Positions 39,839 through 56,639 of a stretch of DNA of 64,000 nt are shown piece by piece. The translations under genes and the position numbers were made by a program. The DNA is from Pirellulaceae bacterium (lineage in GTDB: Bacteria > Planctomycetota > Planctomycetia > Pirellulales > Pirellulaceae), in contig BPJV01000004.1 of the NCBI GenBank assembly GCA_026004795.1, positions 310,001-374,000 of the forward strand, written 5' to 3'. Positions within the stretch are counted from its first letter, which is position 1, and each line of letters begins with the position of its first letter. The notes below the pieces were generated by a model that did no database searches, was not told the DNA's origin, and saw only the letters and a list, made by a program, of their open reading frames with translations.

Positions 39839-39840
39839 TG

Positions 39841-39978
39841 GTTGACCTTGTAGAAAATTACCTTTTTGAGCCGTTTATAGAAAACACGGGAAGTTTTTTT
39901 AGCTGGTTCTTTTCCTGGGGTAATGGAGCTCGTCGGCGCACCCGACTGATCGAAAGATTAGCGGACCCACGTGATTAA
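39841..39978 (+). pseudogene. C-terminal fragment of a probable toxin, cut by IS copy 1
   Basis: Directly at the right end of IS copy 1 a frame reads VDLVENYLFEPFIENTG, SFFSWFFSWGNGARRR, TRLIERLADPRD and stops at 39978. It has no start of its own. Its position (before a small gene, then a cassette leader and RHS core) matches the toxin-tail / immunity order of cassettes A and B, so it is probably the tail of another RHS tip whose core was lost on the other side of the IS. That identity is inferred from position only. Confidence 0.4.
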
Positions 39979-40884: not shown

Positions 40885-40906
40885 ATTAAGTGTTCGGAAG
40901 GATCTT

Positions 40907-40979
40907 GGTGCCACCGACGGCATGGGTTTACGTAACCTTTTCTCCAACACTAGGTTATGAGATGGCACGTGCGGCCGCG
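40907..40979 (+). repeat. RHS cassette leader, copy D
   Basis: A block of about 72 bp that recurs before each RHS core in this window. It begins GGTGCCACC, has an inverted repeat with arms (T)AACCT...AGGTTA, then TATGAGATG, and ends in CGCGAAGAG of the core. Confidence 0.75.
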
Positions 40980-41346
40980 AAGAGATTTTCGTGTGGACCG
41001 ATGGCCAGGAAGTGCTGCGGATTGTCGATTTCGACGCCGAAGGGGTCGACGCGGCGCGGTTGATGAACCGGTACCTGTGGGGGCCAGTGGTGGACCAGTT
41101 GTTGGCCGACGAACAGTATTTATCGTGGTGGTCGCCGGACGCGTTCCACGGCAGCGCGTTTCTGGGGGCTGGGCCCGTCTACTGGCCGCTGACCGATCAC
41201 CTGGGCACAGTCCGCGACCTGGTGGATAGCAACTCGGGCGTCCGCGAACATCAGGTGTTCGACAGTTTCGGCAATCTGGTGCACGAAGCCGACTTTGACG
41301 CGGCGGGCAACCCGATTGCGTCCAGCCATCAAGATGCCGTCGATGC
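40980..41346 (+). pseudogene. RHS-associated core fragment, cassette D, cut by IS66
   Basis: The frame reads EEIFVWTDGQEVLRIVDFDA, LMNRYLWGPVVDQLLADEQ, YWPLTDHLGTVRDLVDSN and ends at SHQDAVDA, exactly where IS66 begins. The other cassettes continue from this point with VFGYTGRSW. These are RHS repeat-associated core motifs. A TGA lies just upstream in this frame, and the ATG after the leader hairpin is out of frame, so it is not expressed as such. The toxin tail is missing; the far side of IS66 carries unrelated sequence. Confidence 0.8.
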
Positions 41347-41487
41347 GTAAGCGCCCAGCAGGGCCATTGGCCGATGGGGGCGTTGGTGGGGGCGTCTGAC
41401 TTGCTCGGTTCGATAGAAGAAGGTGAGAGGGACGATTCCGCAGGCAGGGCGGCGGACGCGAGTTAACGCGCAGCAATTAGCACAGGC

Positions 41488-41650
41488 TGACACATCAGGC
41501 CGACACATCAGGCCGACACATCAGACCGACACATCAGACCGACACATCAGGCCGGCACATCAGGCCGGCACATCAGACCGGCACATCAGACCGGCACATC
41601 AGACCGGCACATCAGACCGGCACATCGGATCGGCACATCGGATCGGCACA
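41488..41650. repeat. 13-bp minisatellite inside the IS66 element
   Basis: About 12 direct copies of ACATCAGRCCGRC with small variations, between the left IS66 end and the tnpC stop. There is no spacer between units, so it is not CRISPR. It may be expanded non-coding filler of the element. Confidence 0.95.
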
Positions 41651-41739
41651 AAGACCGGCACATCGCGCATCGGCACGAAGATCGGCACCAAGGAGAATCA
41701 GTAACGTGGCTGACTTAAACAGTCCCGCTGAGCCGCCGA

Positions 41740-43527
41740 TCATGTGGAGCCCGATCGGGCGCGTTGCTTCCATGCTCGACGCCGGACACGACGCTCTCGT
41801 TTGCGATCCGTCCGCTCCTTGCGCTCCTGAATGCGATGCTCGCGAACAGCTTCCGGATGCTCGTGACGCCAGTGCCATGGCAAGAGCGACTCGTAGTTCG
41901 TATTGCCGGCAAGCAGTTGGTCGAGCACATCCTTGATGTAAGACCACACGTCCAGATCGTTCCGCAGGGCACTGCTAACCAGAGTCAGTAAGCCGGCCGT
42001 TCGTTCACCCCCCTTCACGCTACCAGCAAACAGCCAGTTCTTCCTGCCGATCGCAACCTGTTTCATCAGTTGCTCGGTATCGTTATTGTCGATCGGCACG
42101 TGAGGATCATCCAAATACCGTCGCAACGGACCCCAGTGGTTCTTAATGTATTGGATCGCTTTGCCAAAGTCGGACTTCGGAAGAATCACGTGGCCAGTTC
42201 GCTCGTCCGCGTCCTTCAACCACTGCTCCATCGCCTTCCAGATTTCGACCGCCTCGGTCTGACGCAGTTGCAGACGTTCTTCGGGCGACATATCCTTGCC
42301 ACGGTCCTCGATGTCCCACAACTGTTGATACCACTGCAGCCACTGCCGTCGATCAGACGGATAGGCGTTCGACTCGAATATCTTGCGGCGGGCATGGGCA
42401 TTGCATGCAGCGCGGACAATGGCCCCTTCCGATGCCACCACAATCGACTCGAATCCAGACCAGCAATCTCCTATTAACGTCCCCTGGTAGTCGCGAAACA
42501 TCAACTCGGGGCCGTCCCGGTGGCGACTTACCGTAAAGTCGAACAGATTCAGTTTGATCGTCGAGCCGCGGTAGGCCCACATCCGGCCATTGATGCTGCG
42601 TTTCCCTTCCCGAATTGCCTCGCTGAACACTTCGTGCATACGACGTTGCTTGGGATCCTCCAAGTCGAAGTCGGGCAGCGCACGAGGCAGCAGGAGCGCC
42701 GTTCGCGTTTCATCGGTTCCGATGACCGAGTCTTGCATTAACTGCTGCTTGAAGTACGCGAGTAGAGGCTCGATCACGAAATGGGCTTGGGCGTAGATGT
42801 TGCACAGCGTGCTGCGTTGCGGAGTCCAGCCAATACTGCGAAACAGGTCCTGCTGCCGATAGAATGGCAGGTGATAGCCGAGTCTCGCTGTGATGATCTC
42901 CGCTGCCACCGAAGTATCGTACTTATTGCCTTCCACCAGGCTGCTCGGCCGCTCGGGGGAAGCGATGCCACAATCAGGCGAGGCGGCACAGGCGTACTTG
43001 GGATAGAGTGTCACGAGCACTTTGGCTTTTGGCGGCTGATACACCAGCGTTTCGGTGCGGTCCCACATGGCCTCGGGCAGCAGTTCGCGATCACCGTGAG
43101 TCGGGCAGGTTTTCAAATCGTCAGAAACCTCGGCCATCACCTCTTCACGCGGCAGATGCGGCGGGAGACGCTCGTCTCGCCTCTTGCGCGGACGCCGCCG
43201 CTTATGTTCGGGAATCGTCTGCTCGAGTTCTTCCACGGCATCGGCCAGGCCTTCGGCCGCATCGGCTGCTTCGTCCGAATCGCCGAAATCGAGCTTCAAC
43301 TGATTCGGATCGGCGAGATAGCGTTCGCTGCGTTTGCGAAATGTCTGCAGCAAGAGCTCATCGTAGGCCTTCTTCCAACCGGCAACTTCTTCCTGCAGCG
43401 ACTTGATCTTCAGGTCCTTCTCCTGAAGCTCAACGTCAAGCCTGCGGAGTTGCTCGCGGAAAAGTGCGTTTGCCTGCTCAAGCTGAGCTAGCCGATCGCC
43501 GTCGTCAGGATGCGTTGTTGTGTTCAT
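41740..43527 (-). CDS. tnpC: IS66 transposase TnpC
   Basis: About 595 residues from ATG 43527. The N-terminal coiled coil (LAQLEQANALFREQLRRLDV, then QEKDLKIKSLQEEVAGWKK) precedes FRKRSERY, a zinc-finger-like region (CPTHGD), and the DDE domain: VIGTDETRTALL, TLIGDCWSGFES and the final IDNNDTEQLMKQVAIGRKNW with the catalytic Glu. NAHARRKIFE is also typical. The C-terminus has a long Arg/Lys-rich tail (KERTDRKRERRVRRRAWKQR). Intact reading suggests a functional element. Confidence 0.93.
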   Translation of the reverse strand: MNTTTHPDDGDRLAQLEQANALFREQLRRLDVELQEKDLKIKSLQEEVAGWKKAYDELLLQTFRKRSERYLADPNQLKLDFGDSDEAADAAEGLADAVEELEQTIPEHKRRRPRKRRDERLPPHLPREEVMAEVSDDLKTCPTHGDRELLPEAMWDRTETLVYQPPKAKVLVTLYPKYACAASPDCGIASPERPSSLVEGNKYDTSVAAEIITARLGYHLPFYRQQDLFRSIGWTPQRSTLCNIYAQAHFVIEPLLAYFKQQLMQDSVIGTDETRTALLLPRALPDFDLEDPKQRRMHEVFSEAIREGKRSINGRMWAYRGSTIKLNLFDFTVSRHRDGPELMFRDYQGTLIGDCWSGFESIVVASEGAIVRAACNAHARRKIFESNAYPSDRRQWLQWYQQLWDIEDRGKDMSPEERLQLRQTEAVEIWKAMEQWLKDADERTGHVILPKSDFGKAIQYIKNHWGPLRRYLDDPHVPIDNNDTEQLMKQVAIGRKNWLFAGSVKGGERTAGLLTLVSSALRNDLDVWSYIKDVLDQLLAGNTNYESLLPWHWRHEHPEAVREHRIQERKERTDRKRERRVRRRAWKQRARSGST

Positions 43528-43668
43528 GACGACGAATGTAGCCAGGTGCGCCGATGGCGCAAGACCCTTTTCGAGGTTCTTGCAAGTTTTTTTCAAAACG
43601 TTTTCACGCATCCATTACTCGACGCAGGACGTGTTCGATCCGACCAGCATCACCGGTGCACTCGGTGC

Positions 43669-44037
43669 CTATGCTGCTTGCGTTCTGGATAGAGCAAACC
43701 GTTTGCGACGGCGATCGGAGCCAACCAACGACACGCCGGCAAGCAACATCGCAAGCTGTGTCGTGTCCAATTCGATCGCCTCAGCACCGTCGTTGGGCCG
43801 TAGCGATTCGAACGTCCCCGCTTCGAGCACGCGGTAGTAAAGCCAAAACCCGCCGCGTTCATAATGAAGAACCTTCATGCGATCTTGCCGGCGGTTGATG
43901 AAGACATACAGGCTGCCGTCGAGCGGGTCTGCGTTGAGTTGCTCCCGTACCAGACCGCTAAGTCCGCTAATGCCTCTGCGGAGATCTGCGGGGCGGGTGT
44001 AGACGTAGATTCTGACGCCAGCGGCGATCGATAGCAT
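43669..44037 (-). CDS. tnpB: IS66 accessory protein TnpB
   Basis: About 122 residues starting MLSIAAGVRIYVYTRPADLR, then GISGLSGLVREQL and SLYVFINRRQDRMKVLHYERGG, WLYYRVLEAGTF and LDTTQLAMLLAG. This is the standard TnpB sequence required for IS66 transposition; its biochemical role is unknown. ATG 44037 is chosen because family members start near MLSI; it lies four bases beyond the tnpA stop. Confidence 0.92.
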   Translation of the reverse strand: MLSIAAGVRIYVYTRPADLRRGISGLSGLVREQLNADPLDGSLYVFINRRQDRMKVLHYERGGFWLYYRVLEAGTFESLRPNDGAEAIELDTTQLAMLLAGVSLVGSDRRRKRFALSRTQAA

Positions 44038-44041
44038 GCGG

Positions 44042-44383
44042 TCAGCCTCCCAAGCCCGTTTCATACGTCGCCACCATTTTGTCCAGCGCCAGTTCCACTA
44101 GCCGAAGATCGGGACCGACGACGATCTCCACGTTGTTAGGGAGGCGAATGGATAGGCCCATCGGGGAAACTTGACCTTCGACCACCCGCACTTTTTGAAA
44201 TGCCGGCTGGCCAGTGCGCTGGGACGTGCCGCGGTCGCCGAGCTTCTTTTTCCAGTGGTAGAATGACGGTTGCGAAACCTGCTCGGCTTTGCAGAACTCC
44301 GTGACGGTTTGACCAGATGCAGCATAGCGAGCCATTCGCTGCGACCACTCTCGAATTTTCGCCGGACGCGGTCCTTGTGCCAT
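44042..44383 (-). CDS. tnpA: IS66 accessory protein TnpA
   Basis: About 113 residues: a helix-turn-helix start (WSQRMARYAASGQTVTEFCK, then SQPSFYHWKKKLG) and a C-terminal part with IRLPNNVEIVVGPDLRLVE. This matches the IS66 TnpA family, which probably binds the element ends. It is the first gene of the tnpABC operon and begins about 96 bases inside the right IS end. Confidence 0.92.
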   Translation of the reverse strand: MAQGPRPAKIREWSQRMARYAASGQTVTEFCKAEQVSQPSFYHWKKKLGDRGTSQRTGQPAFQKVRVVEGQVSPMGLSIRLPNNVEIVVGPDLRLVELALDKMVATYETGLGG

Positions 44384-44479
44384 GGGAGTCACTCCTCAGG
44401 TTGACGTAGCAGCTGGAAACTAATCGCCTACGTCACCAACATACCCCCTTCGTCAACAACCGTTCTGATGGGCGCTTAC

Positions 44480-45953
44480 TTTGAATCGCCAGTTAGTTGC
44501 ATCCGAACTAGCGGAACGAACGCCGCCAGAGGGCAATGCAAAGGGCCGTGTCGCTGAATATACGGAGATGGGCCTGATCCGAAACGAGGTCAAGAAACAG
44601 CGGCGTCACTGCCGCATCAGAGACTTGTTCATCCGAGCTGGCCGCGCGGTGCAGGTTCTTAAGCCTTGCTTCCTCATGAGCCCCTTGTCAGTGTCGCAGT
44701 ACATCGTACCTGATGCCGTGGAGTTCGATCTTGTGTTGATCGATGAAGCGTCGCAAGTCAAGCCAGAGGACGCACTGGGTACTATTTTGCGAGCACGCCA
44801 ATTAGTGGTGGTTGGCGATGCTAACCAATTGCCGCCTACATCGTTCTTCGATCGAGTGACCGATGAAGTTGACGATGAGGAGGAAACTCAATTTGATAAT
44901 GCCGAGTCGATTTTGGAGGTGGCGACAAAGGCGTTCCAGCCAGTCCGACGCTTGCGGTGGCATTACCGCAGTCAACACGAGAGCCTCATTCAGTTTTCGA
45001 ACCATCACTTTTACGACAACGACCTGATCGTGTTTCCGTCCCCTTCACGCGATTCGGGCAGACTCGGTGTGGTCTACCACCAGATTGAAGGAGGCTGGTT
45101 CAAGAAAGGTGAGAATCCCGAAGAAGCGAAGCGCGTCGTCGAAGCCGTCATCACGCACCTCAGACGGTATCCTAACGAAAGCCTGGGCGTGGGTGCTCTC
45201 AATCTGAAGCAAAGTCGCTTGATCGAAGAGATTCTCGATGCCGAATGTCAAAAGCATCCTGATGTGATGGAGGCGATAAGCAGGCGGCAGCATTTACAAG
45301 AGCCAATATTCATTAAGAATCTGGAAAATCTGCAAGGCGATGAGCGCGATGTTATTTGCATTTCATGTACATACGGGCCGGATCCAACTACGGGTCGGCT
45401 GATGAACCGTTTTGGGCCCATTAACGGGCCAGCGGGCTGGCGACGATTAAATGTATTGGTGACGCGAGCCCGTCAAAGGTTGGAGTTGTTCTCGTCAATG
45501 CAACCACACGAAATCAATGCCGGACCAGAAAAACCACGTGGAGTGATTGCGCTGCGCAACTACCTGGAGTATGCGTTGACGGGGGGCTCTACCGGGCATC
45601 AATTTGTGAACGAATACGAACTGCGGACCGCGTTCGAACACACTGTTTCCCGAATTGTTGAAAAGGCTGGTCTAGTTCCCGTGCCTCGCATAGGTGTCGC
45701 CGGCTTCTTTCTCGATATGGGTGTGCGCAACCCGAACGGTAATCCTGATTTCCTTCTGGGGATTCAGTACGATGGTCCGTGCTATCGCAGCTCGAAGTCC
45801 ACGAGAGACCGGGATCGATTACAAGACGAGGTGGTGCTTTCGCGAGGTTGGCAGTTGCATCGGTTGTGGTCATTGGACTGGTTCATGAACCAAGCTTATG
45901 AAGAAGAACGCCTCCTGTCGGTTCTCGCGAGTCTACCAAAAGGAGACCACTAA
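44480..45953 (+). pseudogene. N-terminally deleted SF1 helicase with C-terminal restriction-endonuclease-like domain (DUF4011-helicase defence type)
   Basis: The frame opens exactly at the IS66 end and runs 490 codons. Helicase motifs II-VI are present: VLIDEASQVKPEDAL, QLVVVGDANQLPPTSF, RLRWHYRSQHESLIQFSN, NLENLQGDERDVICIS and RLNVLVTRARQRLELFSS. The C-terminus is a PD-(D/E)xK-like domain (GNPDFLLGIQYDGPCYRSS, QDEVVLSRGWQLHRLWSLDWF), as in the MTES_1575/Vsr-like tails of DUF4011 helicases. The ATP-binding motif I and all upstream domains are missing. Proteins of this architecture are known anti-phage factors (Hhe-type). IS66-linked deletion inactivated it. Confidence 0.82.
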
Positions 45954-46342
45954 CTCGGAGACCCGGACTACTGGGCGTCGAAATCGTCTGCTCACGGAAT
46001 CGGGCTGCAGGATGATGAAATCGCAGCCAGGTGGGAACCGTTTTCGATATACTTTTGCCGGTGACCCTCGGCTGTCAGCTTGTCGTCTGACGCCCCTACG
46101 CATTGCCAAACGCGTGTCAAATCAAACCAATTGGTTGAATCGAATCGAGTCAATCAAGCGGTCCAATTGAATGTGAGTTTGCGGTAAGCGTGCGGGCTGG
46201 AAAAATCTTGGATGGAATTGGGCGGGTGGCGGGTTGGCCTGAGCGGGCTGGATGGTGGTGGTGGTGCTTGTGGTGGTGGGAGGGGGTGATAGCCCGGAAC
46301 TAGCGGGCTGCCGGGGCTGGCGGTTGGCTGGGTTCCGATGCT
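45954..46342. other. Remnant DNA with an IS66-like terminus, no gene
   Basis: No coding frame is credible here. Around 46171-46260 the sequence (GGTAAGCGTGCGGGCTGG onward, AAAATCTTGGATGGAAT, GGCGGGTGGC) is closely matched near 56530-56615, and GTAAGCG recalls the IS66 end. It is the outer end of the truncated IS66 copy that follows. Confidence 0.5.
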
Positions 46343-46910
46343 TCAGGGGGACACTCCCGCCTGGGAAAGCTCGGCCTGGCGCTGAGCGTAGTTCCAAGGG
46401 AGCCAGGCATGGGGCTGGGAGGCCACGTCGTCGGCGTGGCGAAGAAGCGCTACCAGATACTGATAAGGATTGATGCGATTCAATTCGCACGTATGGATCA
46501 GCGTCATGTAGACGTCGCCCGCCTCTGCTCCGGTGGGTGAGCGATAGTAGAGCGAGTTCTTGCGGTGCAAAATCGATTTCTTCAGCGCACGCTCGGCCAC
46601 GTTGTTATCCAGAGGAGCGCCGGGAACTCGCAAGAACTGGGTCAGCCGCTCCCAGTGCTTGAGCATGTAGTTGATCGCTTGCCCCAGCGCTGAATTCGGC
46701 TCCACAAGCCGGTCGTCCAATTGCCGGGTCAGCCATTTGTGCAAGCCGTCCATCACCCGCTGGCTCTTGGCCCGGTGCAACGCCAGCCGCTTCTGGGGAG
46801 ACAATCCCTTACGCCGCGCCTCGGCATCCACGCGGTAGACGTGACTGAGCTGCCGGATCACATACTCCGTCTCTTCGGGGAACACGTCGACCAGGTCCAC
46901 TATCAGTAGT
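46343..46910 (-). pseudogene. IS66 transposase (TnpC) C-terminal fragment, second IS66 type
   Basis: About 190 residues on the complement read VFPEETEYVIRQLSHVYRVD, RLALHRAKSQRVMDGLHKWL, NSALGQAINYMLKHWERLTQ and PLDNNVAERALKKSILHRKN, with the DDE glutamate in NVAERALK, then LIHTCELNRINPYQYL. This is the end of an IS66 transposase that differs from the intact one. Upstream (46911 and above) the frame runs into palindromic repeats, so the first two thirds are lost. It marks the left edge of the minus-strand RHS cassettes. Confidence 0.82.
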
Positions 46911-47330
46911 GGAATTCGCCAGAGTTCCCAAATGCCGCAATTCGCCCCGAAGGGGCAGCGCCATGAAAGCCCAGGGCAGAGCGCCAGCGGCGAAGCCGCT
47001 GGAAGCGCCGCCCTGGGAACACGAATGCCCAACCATCCAAGCCCTGAAAGGGCGACCCAATTCTCATGCTGCCTTGTGTCCGTGACGTATATAGTATCCG
47101 CAGCCGCCAGAGGACGATCGGGCCGCCGCCACCGCGCCGGCCCTGGTTGTCGTCGCATAGCGATGCCCTGATAGTAGCCCGGTCATTCATGACCGGGGCG
47201 TCGAGTCCCCAATCCCTCCCTACGCGTCGCGTAGCGATGCGGTGAGGCGCTGTCTGGCGATGTGCAGGCAGAGCCTGCAAGGCATTGAATTCCCAGGCGG
47301 AGCCTGGGAACCAGAAAACCAGAAAAAAAT
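46911..47330. repeat. Cluster of REP-like palindromes
   Basis: Dense short hairpins: GCCCCGAAGGGGC, CCAGCGGCGAAGCCGCTGG, GCCCTGAAAGGGC, CCCGGTCATTCATGACCGGG and TCCCAGGCGGAGCCTGGGA. They fill the space between the IS66 fragment and the end of cassette C and intrude into the cassette C tail. Confidence 0.85.
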
Positions 47331-48338
47331 ATCTTCAATTTCATTTAACGCCTCCTGACATCGCTGCTTTTCTGATTTTGAGGCCTCCAAAGCCGCCTTC
47401 TTTTTTGCTCGCTCAGCTTCAGCTTTCAACTCTCTGTCGATCTTTCTTCGTCCGTCGCTTGCCTTCCTCGATTGCCCCTTTTGGTGGCGTTCTCGATTAG
47501 AAGGACTCGCATTAGCGGTATGCTTTTGTTGTCGTAGTTTCTTAAGAAGTGCTTCTAGTCGCGCACGCAGGTCTTCGTTCTCTTCCAATCCACTCGGATC
47601 GGTTGCGTCGACGGGGGCATTGCCCACATACCGATACAAATTCGCATCGCCAGCGGCGAAGGAGATGGGGTCTTGGCTGAGCCAGCGGCCGAGGGTGGGG
47701 GAGTACCAGCGGGCGCGATTGTATTGCAACTCGACGTCAGTGTCCCACGACCGGCCAGTATAACCGAATACCGTGTCCACCGCATCTTGATGGCTGGACA
47801 AGAGCGGATTGCCCGCCGCGTCATAGTCGGCTTCGTGGAGCAGGTTCTTCTGATTTTCAGCTGGCGACCGGGAACCTCTGGCCGTCGGCCTCCGCGTATC
47901 AGACTGGCTAACCAATCCTCGGCCACTTCGGAGGAAAGAGGCGGAGCCTCAACTGGCAGTGCGTTCCCAGGCGGAGCCTGGGAACGAGGGAAAAGAAATC
48001 TCCGCGAAGTCGGAGCACTCCAAAGATCGGCCAGAATTGTCAAGCGCTGCAAATCAGCGATCCGGGACTCCATGGCTGTCGCATCCCAGCCGCGAAGCGG
48101 CGAGATAATCTAGCTCCGGGCGGGAGCCCGGAGTTCGTGTCGCAGTATCCCGGGAGTCCCGAAGGGACGACATCTGGAACTGTTCGTCGGCCAACAACTG
48201 ATCGACCGCCGCGCCCCACAGGTAGCGATTCATCAACCGTGCCGCGTCCGCCCCCTCCGCATCGAAATCAACAATCCGCAGCACTTCCTGGCCGTCGGCC
48301 CAGACAAAAATCTCTTCGCGATCCCACGTGCATCTCAT
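47220..48338 (-). pseudogene. RHS cassette C: core interrupted by palindromic repeats, Lys-rich tail
   Basis: Starts in frame right after its leader (ATG 48338, MRCTWDREEIFVWADGQE) and reads the RHS core to LLADEQF. There about 300-400 bases of palindromic DNA replace the middle (stop at 48054). The core resumes as LLHEADYDAAGNPLLSSHQD, VFGYTGRSWDTDVELQYNRA and DATDPSGLEENE. The tail after DPSGL is a charged coiled coil (LRARLEALLKKLRQQKH; KAEAERAKKKAALEASKSEK) ending in repeat-derived sequence (IARQRLTASLRDA), so its true C-terminus is gone. No immunity gene remains. It is a dead cassette. Confidence 0.78.
47930..48175. repeat. Palindromic element inserted in cassette C core
   Basis: Contains GAGGCGGAGCCTC, GTTCCCAGGCGGAGCCTGGG, GCCGCGAAGCGGC, CTCCGGGCGGGAGCCCGGAG and GTCCCGAAGGGAC. 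The first two, with their spacer and flanks, recur almost unchanged at 55110-55180 in truncated cassette E. Confidence 0.88.
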
Positions 48339-48388
48339 AACCTGTTGCTGCAGAGCAGGTTATGCTAGTCCGTACGGTGGGTGGCACC
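48317..48388 (-). repeat. RHS cassette leader, copy C
   Basis: Same 72-bp block as the others: GGTGCCACCCAC, hairpin arms AACCTG...CAGGTT around TGCAG, then TATGAGATG. A TAA in the core frame lies in the left arm, so the core cannot be a continuation of an upstream gene. Confidence 0.85.
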
Positions 48389-48688
48389 AAGTATCGCGGA
48401 CCACTCCAGCGAAAATGGCATCCAGCCACCGCGGCCATCAACTCGGCGATCATCCGTGCTCGCCGTCTCGCTTCGCGTTCCTTCTTCTCCTGTTCCGATT
48501 CCAACACAACCAGGCACCCGCAATTCTTCTCCGCTGCATCGCACTGGACAATCTTACGGCGTTGCGTCGGGCTGGTTACTCAACTCCTTCGTCACTATCA
48601 CCAGCCCGCCGCTGCTACCAACTGGTCGAAGTGAAGTGTTACGCACTGTCACAGTGCGACTACAATTCGGCCGGTAACATCTTGCATG
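48389..48688. other. Spacer between immunity gene B and cassette C
   Basis: No gene. The first 80 bases (CCAGCGAAAATGGCATCCAG onward, CACCGCGGCCATCAAC) are shared with the spacer at 51830-51900. A small palindrome GCACTGTCACAGTGC sits near 48645 and could act as a terminator stem, without a clear T-run. Confidence 0.5.
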
Positions 48689-49060
48689 TTAATCCACAAT
48701 CACGAACTGCACATATTCGTATCTCAGTTCCAATTCGCGAAGCACTTGTGGCGTGAGTTGGTCACTTCGAACAACAATCCTTCCTGCGTTGTTGTATTCT
48801 GGATATTCAAGTTTTTCTCGTATCCAACGCTCGTCGACCTCCGCATTACGAAGATCTATTTCTTGTGGCCATACCGAAAACGTTCCCTCTGAAGGAACAA
48901 CTTTGCCGTGGACCTCATTTAGTTCTTTCTCTTGTCGCAGCAACAGCGCCTGGATATTGGCTCGCTTCGTAGCCTCAATAAGAACGAGAGCACTCGCCGA
49001 AAAGAGAAACGCAACGAATAGAATCGTGGCAAGCGAATAAGCCACAAGTTTCTTCTTCAT
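48689..49060 (-). CDS. Membrane-anchored candidate immunity protein for cassette B
   Basis: 123 residues starting MKKKLVAYSLATILFVAFLF, one N-terminal membrane helix followed by a soluble part: LLRQEKELNEVHGKVVPSEG, TFSVWPQEIDLRNAEVDERW and VRSDQLTPQVLRELELRYEY. I do not recognise the family. In the uninterrupted arrangement it begins seven bases after the stop of toxin B, the usual tight toxin-immunity spacing. A membrane-anchored immunity protein would suggest that toxin B acts at the membrane or periplasm. The sequence is AT-rich compared with the backbone. Confidence 0.7.
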   Translation of the reverse strand: MKKKLVAYSLATILFVAFLFSASALVLIEATKRANIQALLLRQEKELNEVHGKVVPSEGTFSVWPQEIDLRNAEVDERWIREKLEYPEYNNAGRIVVRSDQLTPQVLRELELRYEYVQFVIVD

Positions 49061-49111
49061 GAGTTCATTAATCCAAGATGTCCAGCGGCGGATCAACCGG
49101 CCACGGATCCC

Positions 49112-50349
49112 CTGAATCATCCCCAGTTTGGCGCGGCGTTTTGAGTGGCGCGGATGAGGGCGTTGATAATCTGTTGGATGGTCAGGTCGACATGGTGGCG
49201 CATCCGCTTTCCGATCGTAAACACACTGCATTCAGACTGACGCGTGTTCGAGCACCAGTTTTGCGGACAGTACAACTGCCGTGCACGCAGGCCAATTCCC
49301 AACAGGAGAATGTAGGCCAATACCAGAATCAGCAACAAACGATCAAAACGATCGGCGCGGCGAATCTGGGTGTTTCGCAGAGCGAATCCATTCCGACGGC
49401 TCTTGTAGTCACGAAACATCTCTTCGATCGTCATCCGCTTGGCAAACAACTCTGAGATCCGTACCGCATTTCCTTGGAGATTGGTCATCAAGAACCAGCA
49501 TTCGTCACGCTTCTTGGCCAGTCCCTTTTTCCAGCGGATGACAATGTGGTGATCAACCGGATTTCGCTTGCGGTAGGCCACATTCCGTAGGCATCGACAG
49601 ATCCCTTTTTTCACTGGGAAGTCCCGGAGATTGCCTTCGTAATCAGTCGCTTGCACCCACACATCGGGCACGATACGGATGACGTACTGAAACCGAAGTT
49701 CTTGGCACAGACGGGCCATCTCGGTGCGTCCGAAGCCTCGATCGGCCAGCAAGATTACCCGCACTCCATCAGGAAGCATGGTCCGGAATTGCCGCAAGAT
49801 GGCTTCCTCCAGTTGGTGTTGACGCTGGTGAAATTCCTCCTCCGGATAACTGGCCCACAGCAGCGGAATGGCTCGCCCATCGATGGCCGCGCACAGAGCG
49901 ATCGTACGAAACTGTCGCACCTGGACCCAGTCGATGCTTACCACCAATGGCTTCTTTCGCTTGGGGCGGACCAACTGCCGAATCACTCCCTGCATGGCCG
50001 AACTTACCTGCACACGATGGTTATTGGTAAACCGCCACGCACGCTTGATCCTATGCTTGGCGGTAGTCCCTGTCAAGCGGCGGCCCAGTTCGGCAAGGCT
50101 GACCCTGCCGACGTCCAGAGCACCGGCCACCAAATCGCCGAGCGTTTTCGCTTGACTCAGACGCAAACCGGCACATACAGTAAGGACCCAGCTAAAGGCT
50201 TCCATACGATCCATGGCGGTTCCCTCCGTGTTCTTGGGTTGGAATCAGGACTGTTGATACCCAACTTCATACCCAATAACGCGCTGCGTGACACCGCCAA
50301 TTTTTATGCGCCCACGCACACCTCGCCCGGAAAACTGGGGATGGCTCAG
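49112..50349 (-). mobile_element. IS4-family insertion sequence, copy 2
   Basis: 1238 bp in minus orientation, same ends as copy 1. Flanked on both sides by ACGGATCCC (49103-49111 and 50350-50358), a perfect 9-bp target duplication. Apparently identical to copy 3 at the positions where copy 1 differs, so the two inserted recently. Confidence 0.97.
49117..50214 (-). CDS. IS4-family DDE transposase, copy 2
   Basis: 365 residues, intact, with the same catalytic blocks as copy 1 (VVSIDWVQVRQF, VILLADRGFGR, TIEEMFRDYKSRRNGFAL). Protein sequence is identical to copy 3. It lies in the last codons of the cassette B toxin. Confidence 0.95.
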   Translation of the reverse strand: MDRMEAFSWVLTVCAGLRLSQAKTLGDLVAGALDVGRVSLAELGRRLTGTTAKHRIKRAWRFTNNHRVQVSSAMQGVIRQLVRPKRKKPLVVSIDWVQVRQFRTIALCAAIDGRAIPLLWASYPEEEFHQRQHQLEEAILRQFRTMLPDGVRVILLADRGFGRTEMARLCQELRFQYVIRIVPDVWVQATDYEGNLRDFPVKKGICRCLRNVAYRKRNPVDHHIVIRWKKGLAKKRDECWFLMTNLQGNAVRISELFAKRMTIEEMFRDYKSRRNGFALRNTQIRRADRFDRLLLILVLAYILLLGIGLRARQLYCPQNWCSNTRQSECSVFTIGKRMRHHVDLTIQQIINALIRATQNAAPNWG

Positions 50350-51531
50350 ACGGATCCCCCAAAATCACCTTCTCTGTCCGTGTCTCCTCGCCTGGTTTAA
50401 TGCGACTTGCTTTCAACGCTTGCTCAAGCCCCGCCGAAGTCCACCAGAAACAGTCGTATACGCCAACCACATAAGTTTTAGAACCTGATGCCGCTATCTC
50501 AGCTTGAATGTACGCCTCGATTGCAGCTCTGAATTTGTCAACGTCGTGTTCCGTCGGATCAACGACAATTTCGCCAAGAACCGAATAGAACGGCGGTACA
50601 ACTTTGCTTGGCGATGGAGGTAAGGTCGGATACGTTTCAAGGTCGTCAGATCGGATCCTCATTTCGCCAATCGAGTTCAAATCCTTTTCAAACGCACCAT
50701 AACCTTTGTCGTCAATTACCAAGAACCCATGGATGGAACGAACCCACGGATTAAACAGCACCGATCCCTTCTGATATCCCAAGCCAGTGCAAACACCGGT
50801 TCCTGATACTTGCCCAACTGGTCCAATAACGGTTGACGGAACATTTATCGATAATTCGAAACCAAGTGAATTGAGATAGTCTCCCAACTTCTCGCCTGGA
50901 AGCTTTGGCAAGATATTCATCAATTCCCGGAGATCAGTCGGACTAATAGGTCGCTTCTGAGCGGGAAATTCTTCGACTAAGCCACTGGGATCAATTGCAT
51001 TGGTTGGTCGGTTAGCAACATACCGATACAGGTTCGCGTCACCCGCATTGAAGCCGATGGGGTCTTGGCTGAGCCAGCGGCCGAGGGTGGGGGAGTACCA
51101 GCGGGCGCGGTTGTATTGCAAGTCCGCGTCACTGTCCCAGGACCTGCCAGTATAACCGAAGACCGCATCGACGGCATCTTGATGGCTGGACGCAATCGGA
51201 TTGCCCGCCTCGTCGAAGTCGGCTTCGTGGACCAGGTTGCCGAAACTGTCGAACACCTGATGCTCGCGCAGTGTCGAGTTGCTATCCACCAGGTCGCGGA
51301 CCGTCCCCAGATGATCGGTCAGCGGCCAGTAAACGGGCCCGGCCCCCAAAAACGCGCTGCCGTGGAACGCGTCCGGCGACCAGGTCGGCAGGTATTGTTC
51401 GTCGGCCAGCAACTGGTCCACCGCCGCGCTCCACAGGTACCGGTTCATCAACCGCGCCGCATCCGCCCCTTCGGCGTCGAAATCAACAATCCGCAGCACC
51501 TCCTGACCGTCGGCCCACACGAAGATCTCTT

Positions 51532-51601
51532 CACGGTCCCGTGCGTCTCGTAAGCTCGTGCTGCAGAGCACGTTACGCAATCGCATGCGGTGGGTGGTAC
51601 C
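51532..51601 (-). repeat. RHS cassette leader, copy B
   Basis: About 70 bp homologous to the other leaders; hairpin arms CGTGCTC...GAGCACG here, with the central TGCAG kept although the arm bases changed. Compensating changes in the two arms point to selection on the hairpin. In this copy the core frame stays open through the leader. Confidence 0.8.
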
Positions 51602-52085
51602 GATTTTTTCGTGGGTGGCACAGATTTTTCTGTGTTCACTGGCTCGCCCCGCAAGACCGCTACGGCTACGCAGGCTGGAATCAATCGAGTTGGATCATCG
51701 TTTGGTATTCTGACTTCTCTTCCTCAAGCCTACAGTCTCAAGCCTCACGCCTGCTTCCTGCCTGCGCGGGTGCGGGGCTCCCTGGCCGCTTGCCGCTACG
51801 CGGTTTTCGCTTCCGGGCTTCCTGCCCTCCAGCGAAAATGCCATCCAGGCACCGCGGCCATCAACCCTCGCGGCATCCATGACCGCTCGTGCCCAGCACG
51901 TCTTCCAGAACACTGACTAACAGCATGATTGCGTCTCGGTCGTCAACACTCGCGGAACGGCCTCACCTCTCGCCGCTCTTGAACCCAAACCGTCAAAAAG
52001 TTGCGACCGCGAACAGCATCAGCGACGAGCAAGCATCAACGCGCGGTCGTTGCCATGTTTTAAGGCCTGCCCCATTTGACTTCTT
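51602..52085. other. Spacer between immunity gene A and cassette B
   Basis: No gene. It contains GTGGGTGGCAC motifs at 51590-51625 and, at 51830-51900, a segment shared with the spacer before cassette C (CAGCGAAAATGCCATCCAGG onward). The remainder is unassigned. Confidence 0.5.
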
Positions 52086-52415
52086 CTAATCTAACAACGA
52101 GACAGTACCATCTGGCCAATCTTTGAGCATCGTTAAAACATGAACTGACAAGTCTAGCTCAACCGCATCGCCTAATTTGCGAGTGCTGTGAAATTCCAGA
52201 ATCATCTCTTCTAACTGTTCTACCAGAATAAACCGTACTCCAAATGTCTCCGCATAAATCGCATCCAACTCGTCGCGAATTCGCCTTTCTCTCCCGCCGA
52301 AAGAGATCCCACCCAACATATGTTGAGAAATGCTTCTTGCTACATCATCAAGTCCGAGATCACTCTGGATTGCAACGTAGCCACGGAAAAAATAAGTTTG
52401 ATCAGAAGATGACAT
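52086..52415 (-). CDS. Candidate immunity protein for cassette A
   Basis: 109 residues from ATG 52415, with AAGGA five bases upstream; an ATG at 52430 is less likely. The start overlaps the end of the toxin A frame by 14 bases. The protein is small, acidic and soluble (FFRGYVAIQSDLGLDDVARS, MLGGISFGGRERRIRDELDA, VRFILVEQLEEMILEFHSTR), ending MLKDWPDGTVSLLD. I do not recognise the family. Small acidic proteins overlapping a polymorphic-toxin C-terminus are typically the cognate immunity proteins. The gene is AT-rich compared with the backbone. Confidence 0.72.
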   Translation of the reverse strand: MSSSDQTYFFRGYVAIQSDLGLDDVARSISQHMLGGISFGGRERRIRDELDAIYAETFGVRFILVEQLEEMILEFHSTRKLGDAVELDLSVHVLTMLKDWPDGTVSLLD

Positions 52416-52904
52416 GTGCGTCCTTCGCAATTTTCTTTAAGTACTCTGCCTCTGTGTAAATTCTAAATGCGAATTCATTCCGCATTCCAGGTAGCAGTTC
52501 TTTCAGCCTCTTAAGCAATCGAGACTGGACTTCGGATAGCCCAGAAATGTTGCTGCCTGCGCGGAACCAAACGCGTTTGGGAAATTGTTTCGCGAGCTTG
52601 TCACTCACGATAAACGCATCAACGTCAAAATTGCATGAGTCTAACGGCATACCGCCTTTATGCGGTCCCTTTGCCAAGCGTGCGACAGAGCCGCGGAAAC
52701 CGATTCTCGCAGCATCGTCCAGCTCTCGAATTGCTGCTGCCTCTGCACGCATTACGGTTTTAACACCGTGCCGAATTCCAGCACGTGCCCCTCCGGCCCC
52801 TATTTCGCTCAACAAGCCTTCAGCCCAACCAGAATTGAAACCGGCCATACCAGCGTTGAATAGCGACTTCCAATAGGCCTGAGTCCCCTCATACTCGTCA
52901 AATG

Positions 52905-54142
52905 CTGAGCCATCCCCAGTTTTCCGGGCGAGGTGTGCGTGGGCGCATAAAAATTGGCGGTGTCACGCAGCGCGTTATTGGGTATGAAGTTGGGTATCAA
53001 CAGTCCTGATTCCAACCCAAGAACACGGAGGGAACCGCCATGGATCGTATGGAAGCCTTTAGCTGGGTCCTTACTGTATGTGCCGGTTTGCGTCTGAGTC
53101 AAGCGAAAACGCTCGGCGATTTGGTGGCCGGTGCTCTGGACGTCGGCAGGGTCAGCCTTGCCGAACTGGGCCGCCGCTTGACAGGGACTACCGCCAAGCA
53201 TAGGATCAAGCGTGCGTGGCGGTTTACCAATAACCATCGTGTGCAGGTAAGTTCGGCCATGCAGGGAGTGATTCGGCAGTTGGTCCGCCCCAAGCGAAAG
53301 AAGCCATTGGTGGTAAGCATCGACTGGGTCCAGGTGCGACAGTTTCGTACGATCGCTCTGTGCGCGGCCATCGATGGGCGAGCCATTCCGCTGCTGTGGG
53401 CCAGTTATCCGGAGGAGGAATTTCACCAGCGTCAACACCAACTGGAGGAAGCCATCTTGCGGCAATTCCGGACCATGCTTCCTGATGGAGTGCGGGTAAT
53501 CTTGCTGGCCGATCGAGGCTTCGGACGCACCGAGATGGCCCGTCTGTGCCAAGAACTTCGGTTTCAGTACGTCATCCGTATCGTGCCCGATGTGTGGGTG
53601 CAAGCGACTGATTACGAAGGCAATCTCCGGGACTTCCCAGTGAAAAAAGGGATCTGTCGATGCCTACGGAATGTGGCCTACCGCAAGCGAAATCCGGTTG
53701 ATCACCACATTGTCATCCGCTGGAAAAAGGGACTGGCCAAGAAGCGTGACGAATGCTGGTTCTTGATGACCAATCTCCAAGGAAATGCGGTACGGATCTC
53801 AGAGTTGTTTGCCAAGCGGATGACGATCGAAGAGATGTTTCGTGACTACAAGAGCCGTCGGAATGGATTCGCTCTGCGAAACACCCAGATTCGCCGCGCC
53901 GATCGTTTTGATCGTTTGTTGCTGATTCTGGTATTGGCCTACATTCTCCTGTTGGGAATTGGCCTGCGTGCACGGCAGTTGTACTGTCCGCAAAACTGGT
54001 GCTCGAACACGCGTCAGTCTGAATGCAGTGTGTTTACGATCGGAAAGCGGATGCGCCACCATGTCGACCTGACCATCCAACAGATTATCAACGCCCTCAT
54101 CCGCGCCACTCAAAACGCCGCGCCAAACTGGGGATGATTCAG
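52905..54142 (+). mobile_element. IS4-family insertion sequence, copy 3
   Basis: 1238 bp, plus orientation, ends CTGAGCCATCCCC and CTGAATCATCCCC as in the other copies. Flanked by CGTCAAATG on both sides (52896-52904 and 54143-54151), a perfect 9-bp duplication inside the toxin A tail. Confidence 0.97.
53040..54137 (+). CDS. IS4-family DDE transposase, copy 3
   Basis: 365 residues, intact, protein identical to copy 2 (Arg55 and LCQELRF, where copy 1 has Gly55 and LCQQLRF). Start ATG 53040 with GGAGGGAA upstream. Confidence 0.95.
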   Translation: MDRMEAFSWVLTVCAGLRLSQAKTLGDLVAGALDVGRVSLAELGRRLTGTTAKHRIKRAWRFTNNHRVQVSSAMQGVIRQLVRPKRKKPLVVSIDWVQVRQFRTIALCAAIDGRAIPLLWASYPEEEFHQRQHQLEEAILRQFRTMLPDGVRVILLADRGFGRTEMARLCQELRFQYVIRIVPDVWVQATDYEGNLRDFPVKKGICRCLRNVAYRKRNPVDHHIVIRWKKGLAKKRDECWFLMTNLQGNAVRISELFAKRMTIEEMFRDYKSRRNGFALRNTQIRRADRFDRLLLILVLAYILLLGIGLRARQLYCPQNWCSNTRQSECSVFTIGKRMRHHVDLTIQQIINALIRATQNAAPNWG

Positions 54143-55015
54143 CGTCAAATGGAAAAGAAATTACTGAACCCGTTGCTGCAAATCCAACATTGGGCTCCCA
54201 ACTTTCAATTGCCGAGATGTACTCGCGAGAATACTGGGCAAGTAGCTCAAGCTCTGCTATCGACTCGGTCAAGTCACCGCAGCCTTCTGCCTCAAGACCA
54301 CTGGCGTTCTCCCTCAAAGCGGTTGCAAGGGCTGACGCAAAGTTTGCTACGGCGGTCAATTCCGCAATCTTCTGAATCTCCGCATCGTCCAAGACCCAAC
54401 TGAACTTGTTGTTGAAGAATGGAACGTACTTCCAACCCCCTTCGTATGGCTCACGAACTGCCTTCTTCAGTCCACTGGGATCAGTGAAGTTAGTCGGTCC
54501 ATTTCCCACATAACGATAAAGGTTCGCATCGCCTCCAGCGAATCCGATTGGGTCTTGGCTGAGCCAGCGGCCGAGGGTGGGGGAGTACCAGCGGGCGCGG
54601 TTGTATTGCAACTCGACGTCACTGTCCCACGACCGTCCAGTATAACCGAAGACCGCATCGACGGCATCTTGATGGCTGGACGCAATCGGATTGCCCGCCG
54701 CGTCGAAGTCGGCTTCGTGGATCAGGTTGCCAAAGCTGTCGAACACCTGATGCTCGCGGACCGTCGAGTTGCTATCGACCAGGTCGCGGACCGTCCCCAG
54801 GTGATCGGTCAGCGGCCAGTAGACGGGCCCAGCCCCCAGAAACGCGCTGCCGTGGAACGCGTCCGGCGACCACCAAGACAAATACTGTTCGTCGGCCAGC
54901 AACTGGTCCACCGCCGCGCCCCACAGGTACCGGTTCATCAACCGCGCCGCCCCTTCGGCGTCGAAATTAACAATCCGCAGCACCTCCTGGCCGTCGGCCC
55001 GCACAAAAATCTCTT

Positions 55016-55087
55016 CGCGATACTGAACACACCTCATAACCTGCTGCTGCAGAGCAGGTTACGTAATCCCATGCAGTGAGTGGCACC
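55016..55087 (-). repeat. RHS cassette leader, copy A
   Basis: 72 bp: GGTGCCACTCAC, then an inverted repeat with arms AACCTGCT and AGCAGGTT around TGCAGC, then ATGAGGTG. The cassette A frame begins at this ATG, and TAA in the left arm closes the frame upstream. Confidence 0.88.
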
Positions 55088-55109
55088 GAATTTGGCACCC
55101 ACTAGTCGG

Positions 55110-55180
55110 CCACTTCGCGGGAGAGAGGCGGAGCCTCAACTAGCAGCGCGTGCCCAGGCGGAGCCTGGGCACGAGGAAAT
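55110..55180. repeat. Palindromic element, copy in cassette E
   Basis: GAGGCGGAGCCTC, spacer CAACTAGCAGCGCGT, then CCCAGGCGGAGCCTGGG. Nearly the same 60 bases occur at 47922-47993 inside cassette C, so it is a dispersed element that has landed twice in RHS cores. Confidence 0.88.
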
Positions 55181-55229
55181 CAACAATCCGCAGCACTTCC
55201 TGCCCATCAGCCCACACGAAGAATCTCTT
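55181..55229 (-). pseudogene. RHS cassette E: first codons of a core, cut by the palindromic element
   Basis: The complement carries the start of the RHS core (bases for GQEVLRIVD are recognisable, with one extra T that shifts the frame) and then ends at the palindromic element at 55180. Only about 50 bases of the core remain after its leader. Confidence 0.65.
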
Positions 55230-55301
55230 CGCGATCCGATTTTTATCTCATAAGCCTCTGCTACAAAGAAGGTTACGCAAATCCAACCGGTGGGTGGCAC
55301 C
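55230..55301 (-). repeat. RHS cassette leader, copy E
   Basis: Same block as the other four, GGTGCCACCCACC to CGCGAAGAG; the hairpin is decayed (AACCTTCTTTG...CAGAGGCTT). Oldest-looking copy. Confidence 0.7.
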
Positions 55302-55371
55302 AAAGTCCGATTTAAAGTCCGTTTGTGGGTGGCACTAAAGTCCTGTTTGTGGGTGGCACTAAAGTCCTTTT
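55290..55371. repeat. 24-bp direct repeats
   Basis: Three copies of GTGGGTGGCACYAAAGTCC with T-rich ends, starting in leader E. The first 12 bases are the outer end of every cassette leader, so the repeat seems to have expanded from that boundary. Confidence 0.88.
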
Positions 55372-55718
55372 TGCAATGCGGTTGGGCGCACGATGGTCCT
55401 TCCGTGGATTTGTGTCGAGCCGATTGAAGCGCCGGTGAGTTTGGCCTTCGGCCAAAAACGAACTTGGTGCGATTCCGATTCCTGGGGCGTTGCCGCCAGG
55501 CTGCGGTGTCGACAGGGCTTCGCCCAACCTTCCCACTCTCCTGGATTTGTGGGGCGGGCGATTCCAATTGCGACAGCTGGTCGCACTACTCGGCCAACCG
55601 CCGAACAGTCTCCCAGGGATGGTCTGCCGATGCCATAGGAAGCTCACCCTGGGGGCATAACTTTCTATCGCAAAGCCACTTGGGTCAACAGAATTGCTGG
55701 GTTGCACGAAATTGCCTG
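55372..55718. other. Unassigned sequence outside the last cassette
   Basis: About 350 bases with no credible gene. Frames are open on both strands but give low-similarity, proline- and serine-rich products. Confidence 0.45.
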
Positions 55719-56033
55719 ATGGGGGAAGATCTAGAAACGGCGTGGGACCGACCAAGGTTACTCATCGTCGATCGGGACGAAGAGCACATCATCAACTCGT
55801 TGGCCAAACGCGGATGGGGCTGGCCGTTGGACACGTGTACGACGGTCATTCGGCAGATGTTGATCGGTCGCGAGGAGTTCCTCCGCTCGACCCGGTGTTC
55901 CTTCCTGCGCGTCGAGTTCGATCGGTTGCGAAGGGAGCCACGCCAGGTACTGGCGGAGATCACTGGCTTCCTCGACTTCGTCCCCACGCCAGAGCGTTTT
56001 GCTCGCGCTGTGCAGTTTATTCGGTCGGGTTGA
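55719..56033 (+). pseudogene. Sulfotransferase C-terminal fragment
   Basis: About 104 residues starting MGEDLETAWDRPRLLIVDRD read like the end of a sulfotransferase-family protein: VDRDEEHIINSLAKRGWG (3'-phosphate-binding strand and helix), FLRVEFDRLRREPRQVLAEI and TGFLDFVPTPERFARAVQF. The PAPS-binding P-loop that should lie about 100 residues earlier is absent upstream, so this is a remnant of a chromosomal gene cut at the island edge. Confidence 0.5.
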
Positions 56034-56372
56034 TCCGGGGGCAGTGGCAGGCACGCGATTGGCAATAGTGGATCCGCAATGCCCCTTCTGACCGTTGGTC
56101 TGACCGTTGATTGTATTTTCTGTCCGTTCGGCGCCGGCGAGCGATGGTTGTAAGTAGGATTGCGCGGCCATTTGACGACTGTCAGCTCTGCGTATTCGCC
56201 GGCATGCGGGCAGCCGGACCACTGGTCGGGGGCCGGAGGCAGTCGGGGCTGGGGTACGTCGGGACCGGGAGCAGTCGGGGCTGGAGGCTGTCGGGGGCGG
56301 CGTGCCGGAGCGAGGCGGCTGCCCGACGTAGGGCGCCACTTCCTCTTCGCAGACGCAATTCGGGAGCAGCGT

Positions 56373-56491
56373 GACCTGCACACGAAGCTGATCAGCACAC
56401 GAAGCTGACCTGCACACGAAGCTGACCTGCACACGAAGCTGACCTGCACACGAAGCTGATCAGCACGCGGAGCTAACCGGCGCGAGGAGCT
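56373..56491. repeat. 17-bp tandem repeat
   Basis: Seven direct units of the form GACCTGCACACGAAGCT or GATCAGCACACGAAGCT; the last two are degenerate. No spacers. Confidence 0.93.
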
Positions 56492-56639
56492 TCAGCCGCT
56501 CGAACACCAGGGGCTCGCTGCGGTCTTAGCCGATCAGCTTCGGTGAGTGTGCGGCAAGCGTGCAGGCGGGAAGAATCTTGGACGGAATCAGGCGGGTGGC
56601 TGGTGTGGCTGAGCCTTCTGCATAGTGGTCCCCGGGCTC

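What the first reader, a model, noticed from the sequence alone, without database searches (positions are those of the whole stretch)
40907..55301. Array of five orphan RHS-tip toxin cassettes with immunity-gene slots
Seen: five copies of the same block (72-bp leader, then RHS-associated core) in 14 kb, three with the DPSGL junction followed by completely different tails. Two tails (A, B) are followed within ten bases, or overlapping, by small unrelated genes. None is attached to a full-length RHS protein; A and C have an in-frame TAA in the leader and a fresh ATG after it. Established: RHS polymorphic toxins vary after the DPxG junction, and orphan tips can recombine onto a main gene. Inference: this is a storage array of toxin-immunity cassettes whose shared core serves as homology for swapping tips.
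Basis: partly seen in the sequence, partly recalled or inferred. Interest (0 to 1): 0.85.

Follow-up and report, generated by a model that had tools for sequence, protein, structure and literature searches.

The report
Swappable RHS toxin tips, scattered arrays
This stretch is a damaged store of spare toxin tips for a large bacterial surface protein, one of six such stores in the genome, and the DNA carries traces of tips having been moved between stores by recombination in a shared segment, a known strategy seen here in an unusual layout.

Summary
The block is real. Five copies of a shared leader (66 nt in my alignment) lie at 40902-55306; each is followed by RHS core sequence (one a stub); three cores reach DPSGL and carry unrelated tails. 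It is one of six islands in this 5.59-Mb genome, with 15 strong leaders and 9 distinct tails. A full-length RHS gene with the same core lies on another contig, frame-interrupted in this assembly. Tip movement shows as a footprint: a tail shared by the window and contig C1 differs at 3 of 776 sites from inside one core onward, and its immunity gene, leader and the next core's start at 4 of 1186, while flanking core differs at 11-13%. Orphan cores are under purifying selection (median dN/dS 0.13). The window array is mostly broken: IS4 copies with 9-10 bp target duplications interrupt two tails; the third looks degenerate. Orphan RHS tips are known from enterobacteria. What differs is one fixed leader-core junction, scattering over six islands, and a second, unrelated toxin carrier with a related element nearby. 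Verdict: new variant of a known kind.

The parts
38601..39841 (+). IS4-type insertion sequence (365-aa transposase 38736-39833), 99% complementary to the copy at 49109-50349
   Evidence: the near-identical transposase 49117-50214 passes NCBIfam NF033591
40902..40967 (+). leader A
   Evidence: R1 72.7 bits; alignment
40968..41347 (+). RHS core A, 5' part only, no DPSGL, out of frame with the leader ATG; abuts a tandem-repeat/IS66-type block
41740..44392 (-). IS66-type element (ORFs 41740-43611, 43669-44064, 44042-44392); same block 98-99% identical in L040 and L105. The name IS66 is recalled from the ORF set, not from a family search
47223..47585 (-). tail T3 (after DPSGL), 121 aa; also in L037, L038 and L039; no clear immunity gene seen
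47586..48331 (-). RHS core B in two pieces (47586-47858 and 48179-48331) around an insert holding an Acido-Lenti-1 match at 48088-48133
48328..48393 (-). leader B, ATG in frame with the core start
   Evidence: R1 78.1 bits
48689..49096 (-). probable immunity gene of tail T1 (membrane helix by eye); 99-100% identical to L037 10356-10763, which follows the uninterrupted T1 gene there
49109..50349 (-). IS4 element inserted near the 3' end of the T1 gene; 10-bp direct repeat on both sides
50351..50977 (-). toxin tail T1 (209 aa before the IS), 99.5% identical in protein to the L037 tail; one outside relative found, the tail of an orphan RHS tip in G052
50978..51535 (-). RHS core C, open frame, ends in DPSGL
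51541..51606 (-). leader C (ACG at the place of the leader ATG; an ATG at 51586 is in frame)
   Evidence: R1 70.1 bits
52086..52430 (-). candidate immunity gene of T4 (114 aa), overlaps 52402-52848 by 29 nt; no Pfam hit at E<=1
52402..52848 (-). probable distal part of toxin T4, on the far side of the IS4 (inferred from the 9-bp target duplication); no Pfam hit at E<=1
52905..54142 (+). IS4 element splitting toxin T4; 9-bp direct repeat on both sides
54144..54467 (-). proximal part of toxin tail T4 (108 aa)
54468..55019 (-). RHS core D, ends in DPSGL
55027..55092 (-). leader D, ATG in frame
   Evidence: R1 76.9 bits
55176..55240 (-). core stub E (about 65 nt)
55241..55306 (-). leader E (TAA in frame after the leader ATG); within 55176-56609, shared at 95% with L037, and 55176-56052 at 93% with L039
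   Evidence: R1 85.5 bits

Best explanation
The window holds one of six islands of orphan RHS tip cassettes. A cassette is leader + about 190 codons of RHS core + DPSGL + variable toxin tail + immunity gene. Tips reach new positions by homologous recombination inside the conserved core, so a tail travels with its immunity gene up to the next core. A tip becomes deliverable when it recombines onto a full-length RHS gene such as the one on C1. Shown: repeated units, unrelated tails, a full-length gene with the same core, identity change points in or next to cores, purifying selection on the core, IS4 damage in the window. Inferred: that the tails are toxins and the small genes immunity proteins, that transfer onto the full-length gene happens in living cells, and that most window units are silent.
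For: Six islands: 13 of the genome's 15 TIGR03696 hits over cut-off and its 15 strong leaders. Nine mutually unrelated tails. Exchange tract, window vs L037: 44 of 415 core sites differ before window 51126 and 3 of 776 after it (0 of 2000 shuffles as strong). Beyond the IS4, 4 of 1186 aligned sites differ down to 47927 and 51 of 337 after it; with the ragged alignment end trimmed 40 of 312 (0 of 2000). The start of core B differs at 0 of 153 sites, its insert at 14 of 320, its end at 29 of 244. Full-length gene vs its tandem duplicate: 68 differences in 1892 aligned sites through repeats and core, then 217 in 379 from L038 7904, just before DPSGL ends at 7931. Core dN/dS 0.06-0.22, median 0.128, over 55 pairs of 11 copies. 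Of nine small genes scanned, two pass a Pfam cut-off, SUKH-1 (L040 10279) and WG repeats (L041 12818); SUKH is an immunity family in PMC3482391 (passages). Relatives of the order (G052, G041, G054) have a 2365-3540-aa RHS frame with 2 to 6 further cores on the same strand.
Against: Only 5 of 15 units read by eye have an ATG/GTG at the leader end in frame with the core, plus one with an upstream ATG; that fits silence but leaves the purifying selection to be explained by passage through a full-length gene. The full-length gene has frame breaks. The right-hand change point (47927) lies in the insert that interrupts core B, 69 nt before the core resumes, not in core sequence, and a length difference of about 38 nt near 48183 was set aside. 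The shuffles treat sites as independent. No case of one tail on an orphan here and on a full-length gene elsewhere was found for the two tails searched (T1, T5; 346 genomes of the order). None of the nine tails passes a Pfam or NCBIfam cut-off; the best is DUF4258 in T6 (E 9e-4, 19.9 bits against 25). Seven of the nine small genes pass none.
Confidence: 0.8

Rival explanations
1. The islands are plain segmental duplications spread by IS66/IS4 elements; the repeated cores are debris with no role in swapping.
For: Flanks of islands are shared (window 55176-56609 vs L037 95%; 55176-56052 vs L039 93%), the T3 end cassette plus IS66-type remnant recurs in four islands, and IS elements pervade them.
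Against: The two mapped change points lie in a core and in the insert of a core, not at IS ends. Core dN/dS of about 0.13 with dS 0.16-0.53 is not debris. In the duplicated full-length gene identity holds to just before DPSGL and then stops.
Confidence: 0.12
2. Orphan units are small independent genes (leader = promoter and start) that make short RHS-tip toxins or act inside the cell as toxin-antitoxin pairs.
For: A shared 5' leader with ATG/GTG in frame in some units (for example L037 11962, L041 15189, window 55027), purifying selection on the core. A Salmonella paper proposes RHS elements as toxin-antitoxin modules (PMC7043789, search listing with the start of its abstract only).
Against: In 9 of 15 units read by eye neither the leader ATG/GTG nor an upstream ATG reads into the core: stop, frame shift, missing start or missing leader. 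No conserved RNA structure in the leader. No promoter test was made.
Confidence: 0.15
3. The leader is a site for a dedicated recombinase (integron-like), and cassettes move as leader-to-leader units.
For: One leader-core junction in the leader-bearing units; 27 of 37 weaker R1 hits lie within 5.5 kb of a second, unrelated toxin-cassette family.
Against: The one cassette exchange that could be mapped begins in a core and runs past the next leader into the next unit. No conserved hairpin. 10 of 37 weaker hits are far from any such block. No recombinase was searched for.
Confidence: 0.08

Closest known systems
Enterobacterial rhs loci with dissociated C-terminal tips (C-terminal displacement; Jackson et al. 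2009, PMC2935791, passages seen)
   Same: Core plus non-homologous tips after an intact rhs gene, tips exchangeable, fragments mostly without a start site in the example given, recombination in the core proposed.
   Different: [quoted passage not shown] coli locus are identical, and fragments lie downstream of intact genes. Here the leader-bearing units start at one junction, cores differ (dS 0.16-0.53), and units are scattered over six islands, with a full-length gene seen in one of them.
Salmonella Typhimurium LT2 rhs main/orphan pair (Koskiniemi et al. 2014, PMC3967940, abstract and passages seen)
   Same: An orphan tip with immunity gene that is deployed after recombining onto the main gene through a shared core stretch (522 bp, 95% identity in their text).
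   Different: One orphan next to the main gene and experimental proof; here many, dispersed, and no experiment.
CDI and Rhs orphan toxin/immunity modules (Poole et al. 2011, PMC3150448, passages seen); polymorphic toxin cassettes (Zhang et al. 2012, PMC3482391, abstract and passages seen)
   Same: Toxin plus immunity gene as the unit exchanged in one recombination event; arrays of cassettes.
   Different: No shared leader and no carrier like the second one noted below in the passages I saw; the full texts were not read.

Membership tests
RHS polymorphic-toxin orphan module | RHS-associated core ending in DPxG | tested here: met
   TIGR03696 E 3e-22 to 3e-21 in three window ORFs; DPSGL in three; phmmer of core C to solved RHS-type chains, best E 3.5e-13
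RHS polymorphic-toxin orphan module | C-terminal tail unrelated between units, break at DPxG | tested here: met
   nine tails, no match better than E 0.22 between different ones; the L038 pair breaks at 7904 against DPSGL end 7931
RHS polymorphic-toxin orphan module | adjacent immunity gene | tested here: inconclusive
   a small gene follows the tail in T1 and T2 (L037), T5 and T6 (L038), T7 (L040), T8 and T9 (L041); of nine small genes scanned two pass a Pfam cut-off; in the window IS4 lies between tail and candidate
RHS polymorphic-toxin orphan module | full-length gene with matching core in the genome | tested here: met
   L038 1611-7931, YD repeats in 1611-5858 running into the same core; frame-interrupted in this assembly
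RHS polymorphic-toxin orphan module | recombination through the core moves tips | tested here: met
   change points at 51126 (in core C) and 47927 (in the insert of core B), 0 of 2000 shuffles as strong for each; one exchange mapped, movement onto a full-length gene not shown
RHS polymorphic-toxin orphan module | tail is toxic and neighbour protects | not testable with these tools
   needs expression tests
Integron-type cassette array | structured attC-like site and integrase | tested here: inconclusive
   RNAalifold on 13 leaders gives 3 weak pairs and -0.03 kcal/mol; an integrase was not searched for

The most novel reading that the evidence does not exclude
Two unrelated polymorphic-toxin carriers in one genome, the RHS gene and a so far unnamed surface protein with Ntox28, Colicin E5, AHH and EndoU-like tails, are both dispersed as cassettes that lie beside one family of 50-66 nt elements. 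That element may be a dedicated junction (recombination hot spot or transposition target) that scatters toxin-immunity cassettes around the chromosome.
Probability: 0.13. Interest if true: 0.8.

Novelty: new variant of a known kind. Interest (0 to 1): 0.52.

Why it matters
It gives a sequence-level record of tip swapping: a toxin-immunity cassette whose two exchange boundaries can be placed, one in a core and one in the interrupted next core, within one genome. It also shows a layout in which spare tips are scattered rather than queued behind the main gene, and selection that preserves cores of which most have no evident start where they lie. The second carrier, if confirmed, would add a delivery scaffold to the list of polymorphic toxins.

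Tried and rejected
Leader as a conserved hairpin (AACCT...AGGTT looked promising by eye): rejected, RNAalifold finds no such helix. Integron attC: the arms do not fit the attC core consensus (recalled), and the mapped exchange runs past a leader; no integrase search was made. Tails as one diverged family: not supported by BLASTP (no profile comparison). Structure of tail T1: AlphaFold without an alignment gave mean pLDDT 37, not used. T1 in solved structures: no match up to E 1; T4 distal piece: nothing better than E 0.034. Organism name: the genome-contig scan returned no confirmed relative; the host is probably a planctomycete, by inference only (PF07595, E 0.014, below cut-off; protein types in the window by eye). 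Papers on Acido-Lenti-1: none in the library. Papers holding planctomycetes, polymorphic toxin and rhs: 2. The other RHS-like frame at C3:357585 was fetched (L151) and not examined.
Full report
Observation. The window is C4:310001-374000 of a 5.59-Mb genome in 17 contigs. Aligning unit starts gives a shared 66-nt leader with consensus TTGGTGCCACCCACCGnnTGGATTTGCGTAACCTnCTTTGCAGCAnnAGGTTATGAGATG (13 leaders, mean column identity 72%), followed by a core start such as GGGATCGCGAAGAGAT. A profile of the leader (R1) scores the five window leaders at 70-86 bits; they or an identical copy were in its training set. Three window units reach DPSGL and carry tails that do not resemble each other.

Genome context. 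The core protein hits 26 pieces in the genome. All but the one on C11 fall in six islands: the window, C1:154-161 kb (L037), C1:619-633 kb (L038), C2:397 kb (L039), C3:207-211 kb (L040) and C4:716-721 kb (L041, which ends at a contig end). TIGR03696 gives 15 hits over cut-off, 13 in the islands, one on C11 and one in a 1717-aa frame at C3:357585 that I did not examine. R1 finds 52 matches at E<=1 with 150 of 1795 first-look candidates scored. The best 15 (48-87 bits) are all in the islands; 14 precede core sequence and one (C1:631801) does not. Two further cores (L040 10074, L041 17845) lack the leader.

The full-length gene. L038 holds a long RHS frame (1611-5858, 1415 aa, YD repeats in NCBIfam), continuing with frame breaks into the same core at 7371, tail T5 and a 160-aa gene. 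A tandem duplicate of its 3' half (about 9374-11417) has the same core and another tail, T6, with a DUF4258 match below cut-off (E 9e-4) and a 92-aa gene behind it. Orphans and full-length gene part at the leader-core junction: upstream of it the gene carries RHS repeat sequence, the orphans the leader. I saw no full-length gene of this core in the stretches read of the other five islands.

Footprints of swapping. First, the two copies in L038 differ at 68 of 1892 aligned sites through repeats and core, then at 217 of 379 from 7904 on; DPSGL ends at 7931. Second, tail T1 is present in the window and in L037. The copies differ at 44 of 415 sites in the 5' part of the core but at 3 of 776 from window 51126 to the IS4. 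On the far side of the IS4 they differ at 4 of 1186 aligned sites through immunity gene, leader B, the start of core B (0 of 153) and most of the insert that interrupts core B, then at 51 of 337 from 47927 on, or 40 of 312 with a ragged run at the alignment end trimmed off; 0 of 2000 shuffles were as strong for each change point, with sites shuffled as if independent. A length difference of about 38 nt near 48183 was set aside. The near-identical tract thus runs from inside one core, through tail, immunity gene and leader, into the interrupted next core, and ends 69 nt before that core resumes. Two crossovers or a gene conversion using the flanking units is the simplest reading; that the right-hand end lies in the insert and not in core sequence is a blemish on it.

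Selection. Pairwise dN/dS of the core is 0.06-0.22 (median 0.128, 55 pairs of 11 copies; columns inserted relative to window copy C were left out), with dS 0.16-0.53; in the 21 pairs of seven copies without insertions it is 0.07-0.22. The cores are not decaying freely. Yet of 15 units read by eye five have an ATG or GTG at the leader end reading into the core and one more has an upstream ATG; nine do not. Constraint through passage via a full-length gene would explain both; it is inference.

Damage in the window. Three near-identical IS4-type elements lie at 38601-39841, 49109-50349 and 52905-54142. The second sits near the 3' end of the T1 gene with a 10-bp repeat, the third splits T4 with a 9-bp repeat. 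T3 recurs in four islands with IS66-type remnants behind it. Of five window units, none is a plain intact toxin-immunity cassette.

Tails and small genes. None of the nine tails passes a Pfam or NCBIfam cut-off, and the seven scanned with PADLOC had no match at E<=0.01. Of nine small genes scanned with Pfam, SUKH-1 (L040 10279, E 1e-15) and WG repeats (L041 12818, E 5e-28) pass; three have only sub-threshold matches and four none at E<=1. Toxin and immunity are therefore read mainly from layout.

Relatives. The core has matches in 46 of 60 genomes, own included. In G052 and G041 a 2365- and a 3540-aa RHS frame is followed on the same strand by six and two further cores, with different tails by eye; G054 has a 2378-aa frame with two further cores in line; G057 and G035 have rows of three or four. 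There the frame before the core motif in the shorter copies varies from 35 to 476 aa (stop to stop), unlike the single junction here. At E 0.01 R1 has no match in the 39 other genomes searched (130 candidates scored per genome). T1 has one relative in 346 genomes of the order, the tail of an orphan tip in G052 (32% over 154 aa); T5 has none. The other seven tails were not searched in relatives.

Second carrier. Weaker R1 hits led to another cassette family: a block of about 96 aa (92-99% identical in its best ten copies), 25 pieces in this genome, with weak matches in two of the 39 other genomes searched. Of ten frames scanned, three pass Pfam cut-offs in their tails, Ntox28 (E 6e-14), AHH (6e-12) and Colicin E5 (3e-7); EndoU_bacteria (3e-5) is just below, and five had no match at E<=0.05. 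At least five cassettes in L103-L105 have a small gene directly behind. A 1123-aa frame on C3 (L145 3706-7074) may be the full-length gene. In G010 a carrier relative ends in an HNH-like tail followed by an SMI1-like gene, by eye. 27 of 37 weaker R1 hits lie within 5.5 kb of one of 20 block positions, which cover at most 4% of the genome at that distance; the hits are clustered, and 10 of 37 are far from any block. The motif TTKGTGCCACCCACC alone occurs 26 times, 5 of them at RHS leaders. So the element is not confined to toxin cassettes, and whether it takes part in dispersal is open.

Known or new. Dissociated tips, silent cassettes and recombination through the core are described for enterobacterial rhs (PMC2935791, PMC3150448, PMC3967940; passages seen) and cassettes for polymorphic toxins at large (PMC3482391; abstract and passages seen). 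The mechanism is therefore known; the fixed junction, the scattering and the second carrier are what is added. The paper searches behind this were made; they cover an open-licence library only, and the second carrier was not searched for by name.

Noticed in passing
L103, L104, L105, L107, L108, L145-L150 (C1, C2, C3, C5, C7, C10): A second, non-RHS polymorphic-toxin carrier: conserved block SSVDYQQHYDSVDQAIMLLGEMGWDYQSLRDASFQ... in 25 pieces with different tails (Ntox28, AHH, Colicin E5, EndoU-like) and, in at least five cassettes, a small gene behind; weak relatives in two same-genus genomes.
   Followed up: partly
L145 3706-7074 (C3:229706-233074): 1123-aa frame with a planctomycete-type N-terminal signal match (PF07595, E 0.014, below cut-off) and the second carrier's block near its end: candidate full-length gene of that system.
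   Followed up: partly
genome-wide, e.g. L104 7353-7418, L103 5949-6014: Element TTTGGTGCCACCCACC...GCAAGTGCTTCTGC...AAGTTAGG related to the RHS leader, often near cassettes of the second system; TTKGTGCCACCCACC occurs 26 times against 0 for the reversed control.
   Followed up: partly
window 48088-48133: Acido-Lenti-1 RNA match (42.9 bits, cut-off 37) in the insert of RHS core B; that part of the insert is 99-100% identical in window, L037 and L039.
   Followed up: no
window 44481-45953: Frame like the C-terminal third of an Hhe/ProA-type anti-phage protein (NCBIfam 692 bits to Hhe positions 1202-1683 of 1797, under its full-length cut-off; PADLOC PDC-S37), inside the RHS island.
   Followed up: no
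L041 1886-5233: HmaC-type defence ATPase (PADLOC 1183 bits) in the same 18-kb stretch as the C4:716-721 kb island.
   Followed up: no
window 56355-56490: 17-bp tandem repeat (TGACCTGCACACGAAGC) in a flank shared with L037.
   Followed up: no
L151 (C3:352001-361000): Another RHS core (TIGR03696 57 bits at C3:357585) in a 1717-aa frame, not hit by this family's core query.
   Followed up: no
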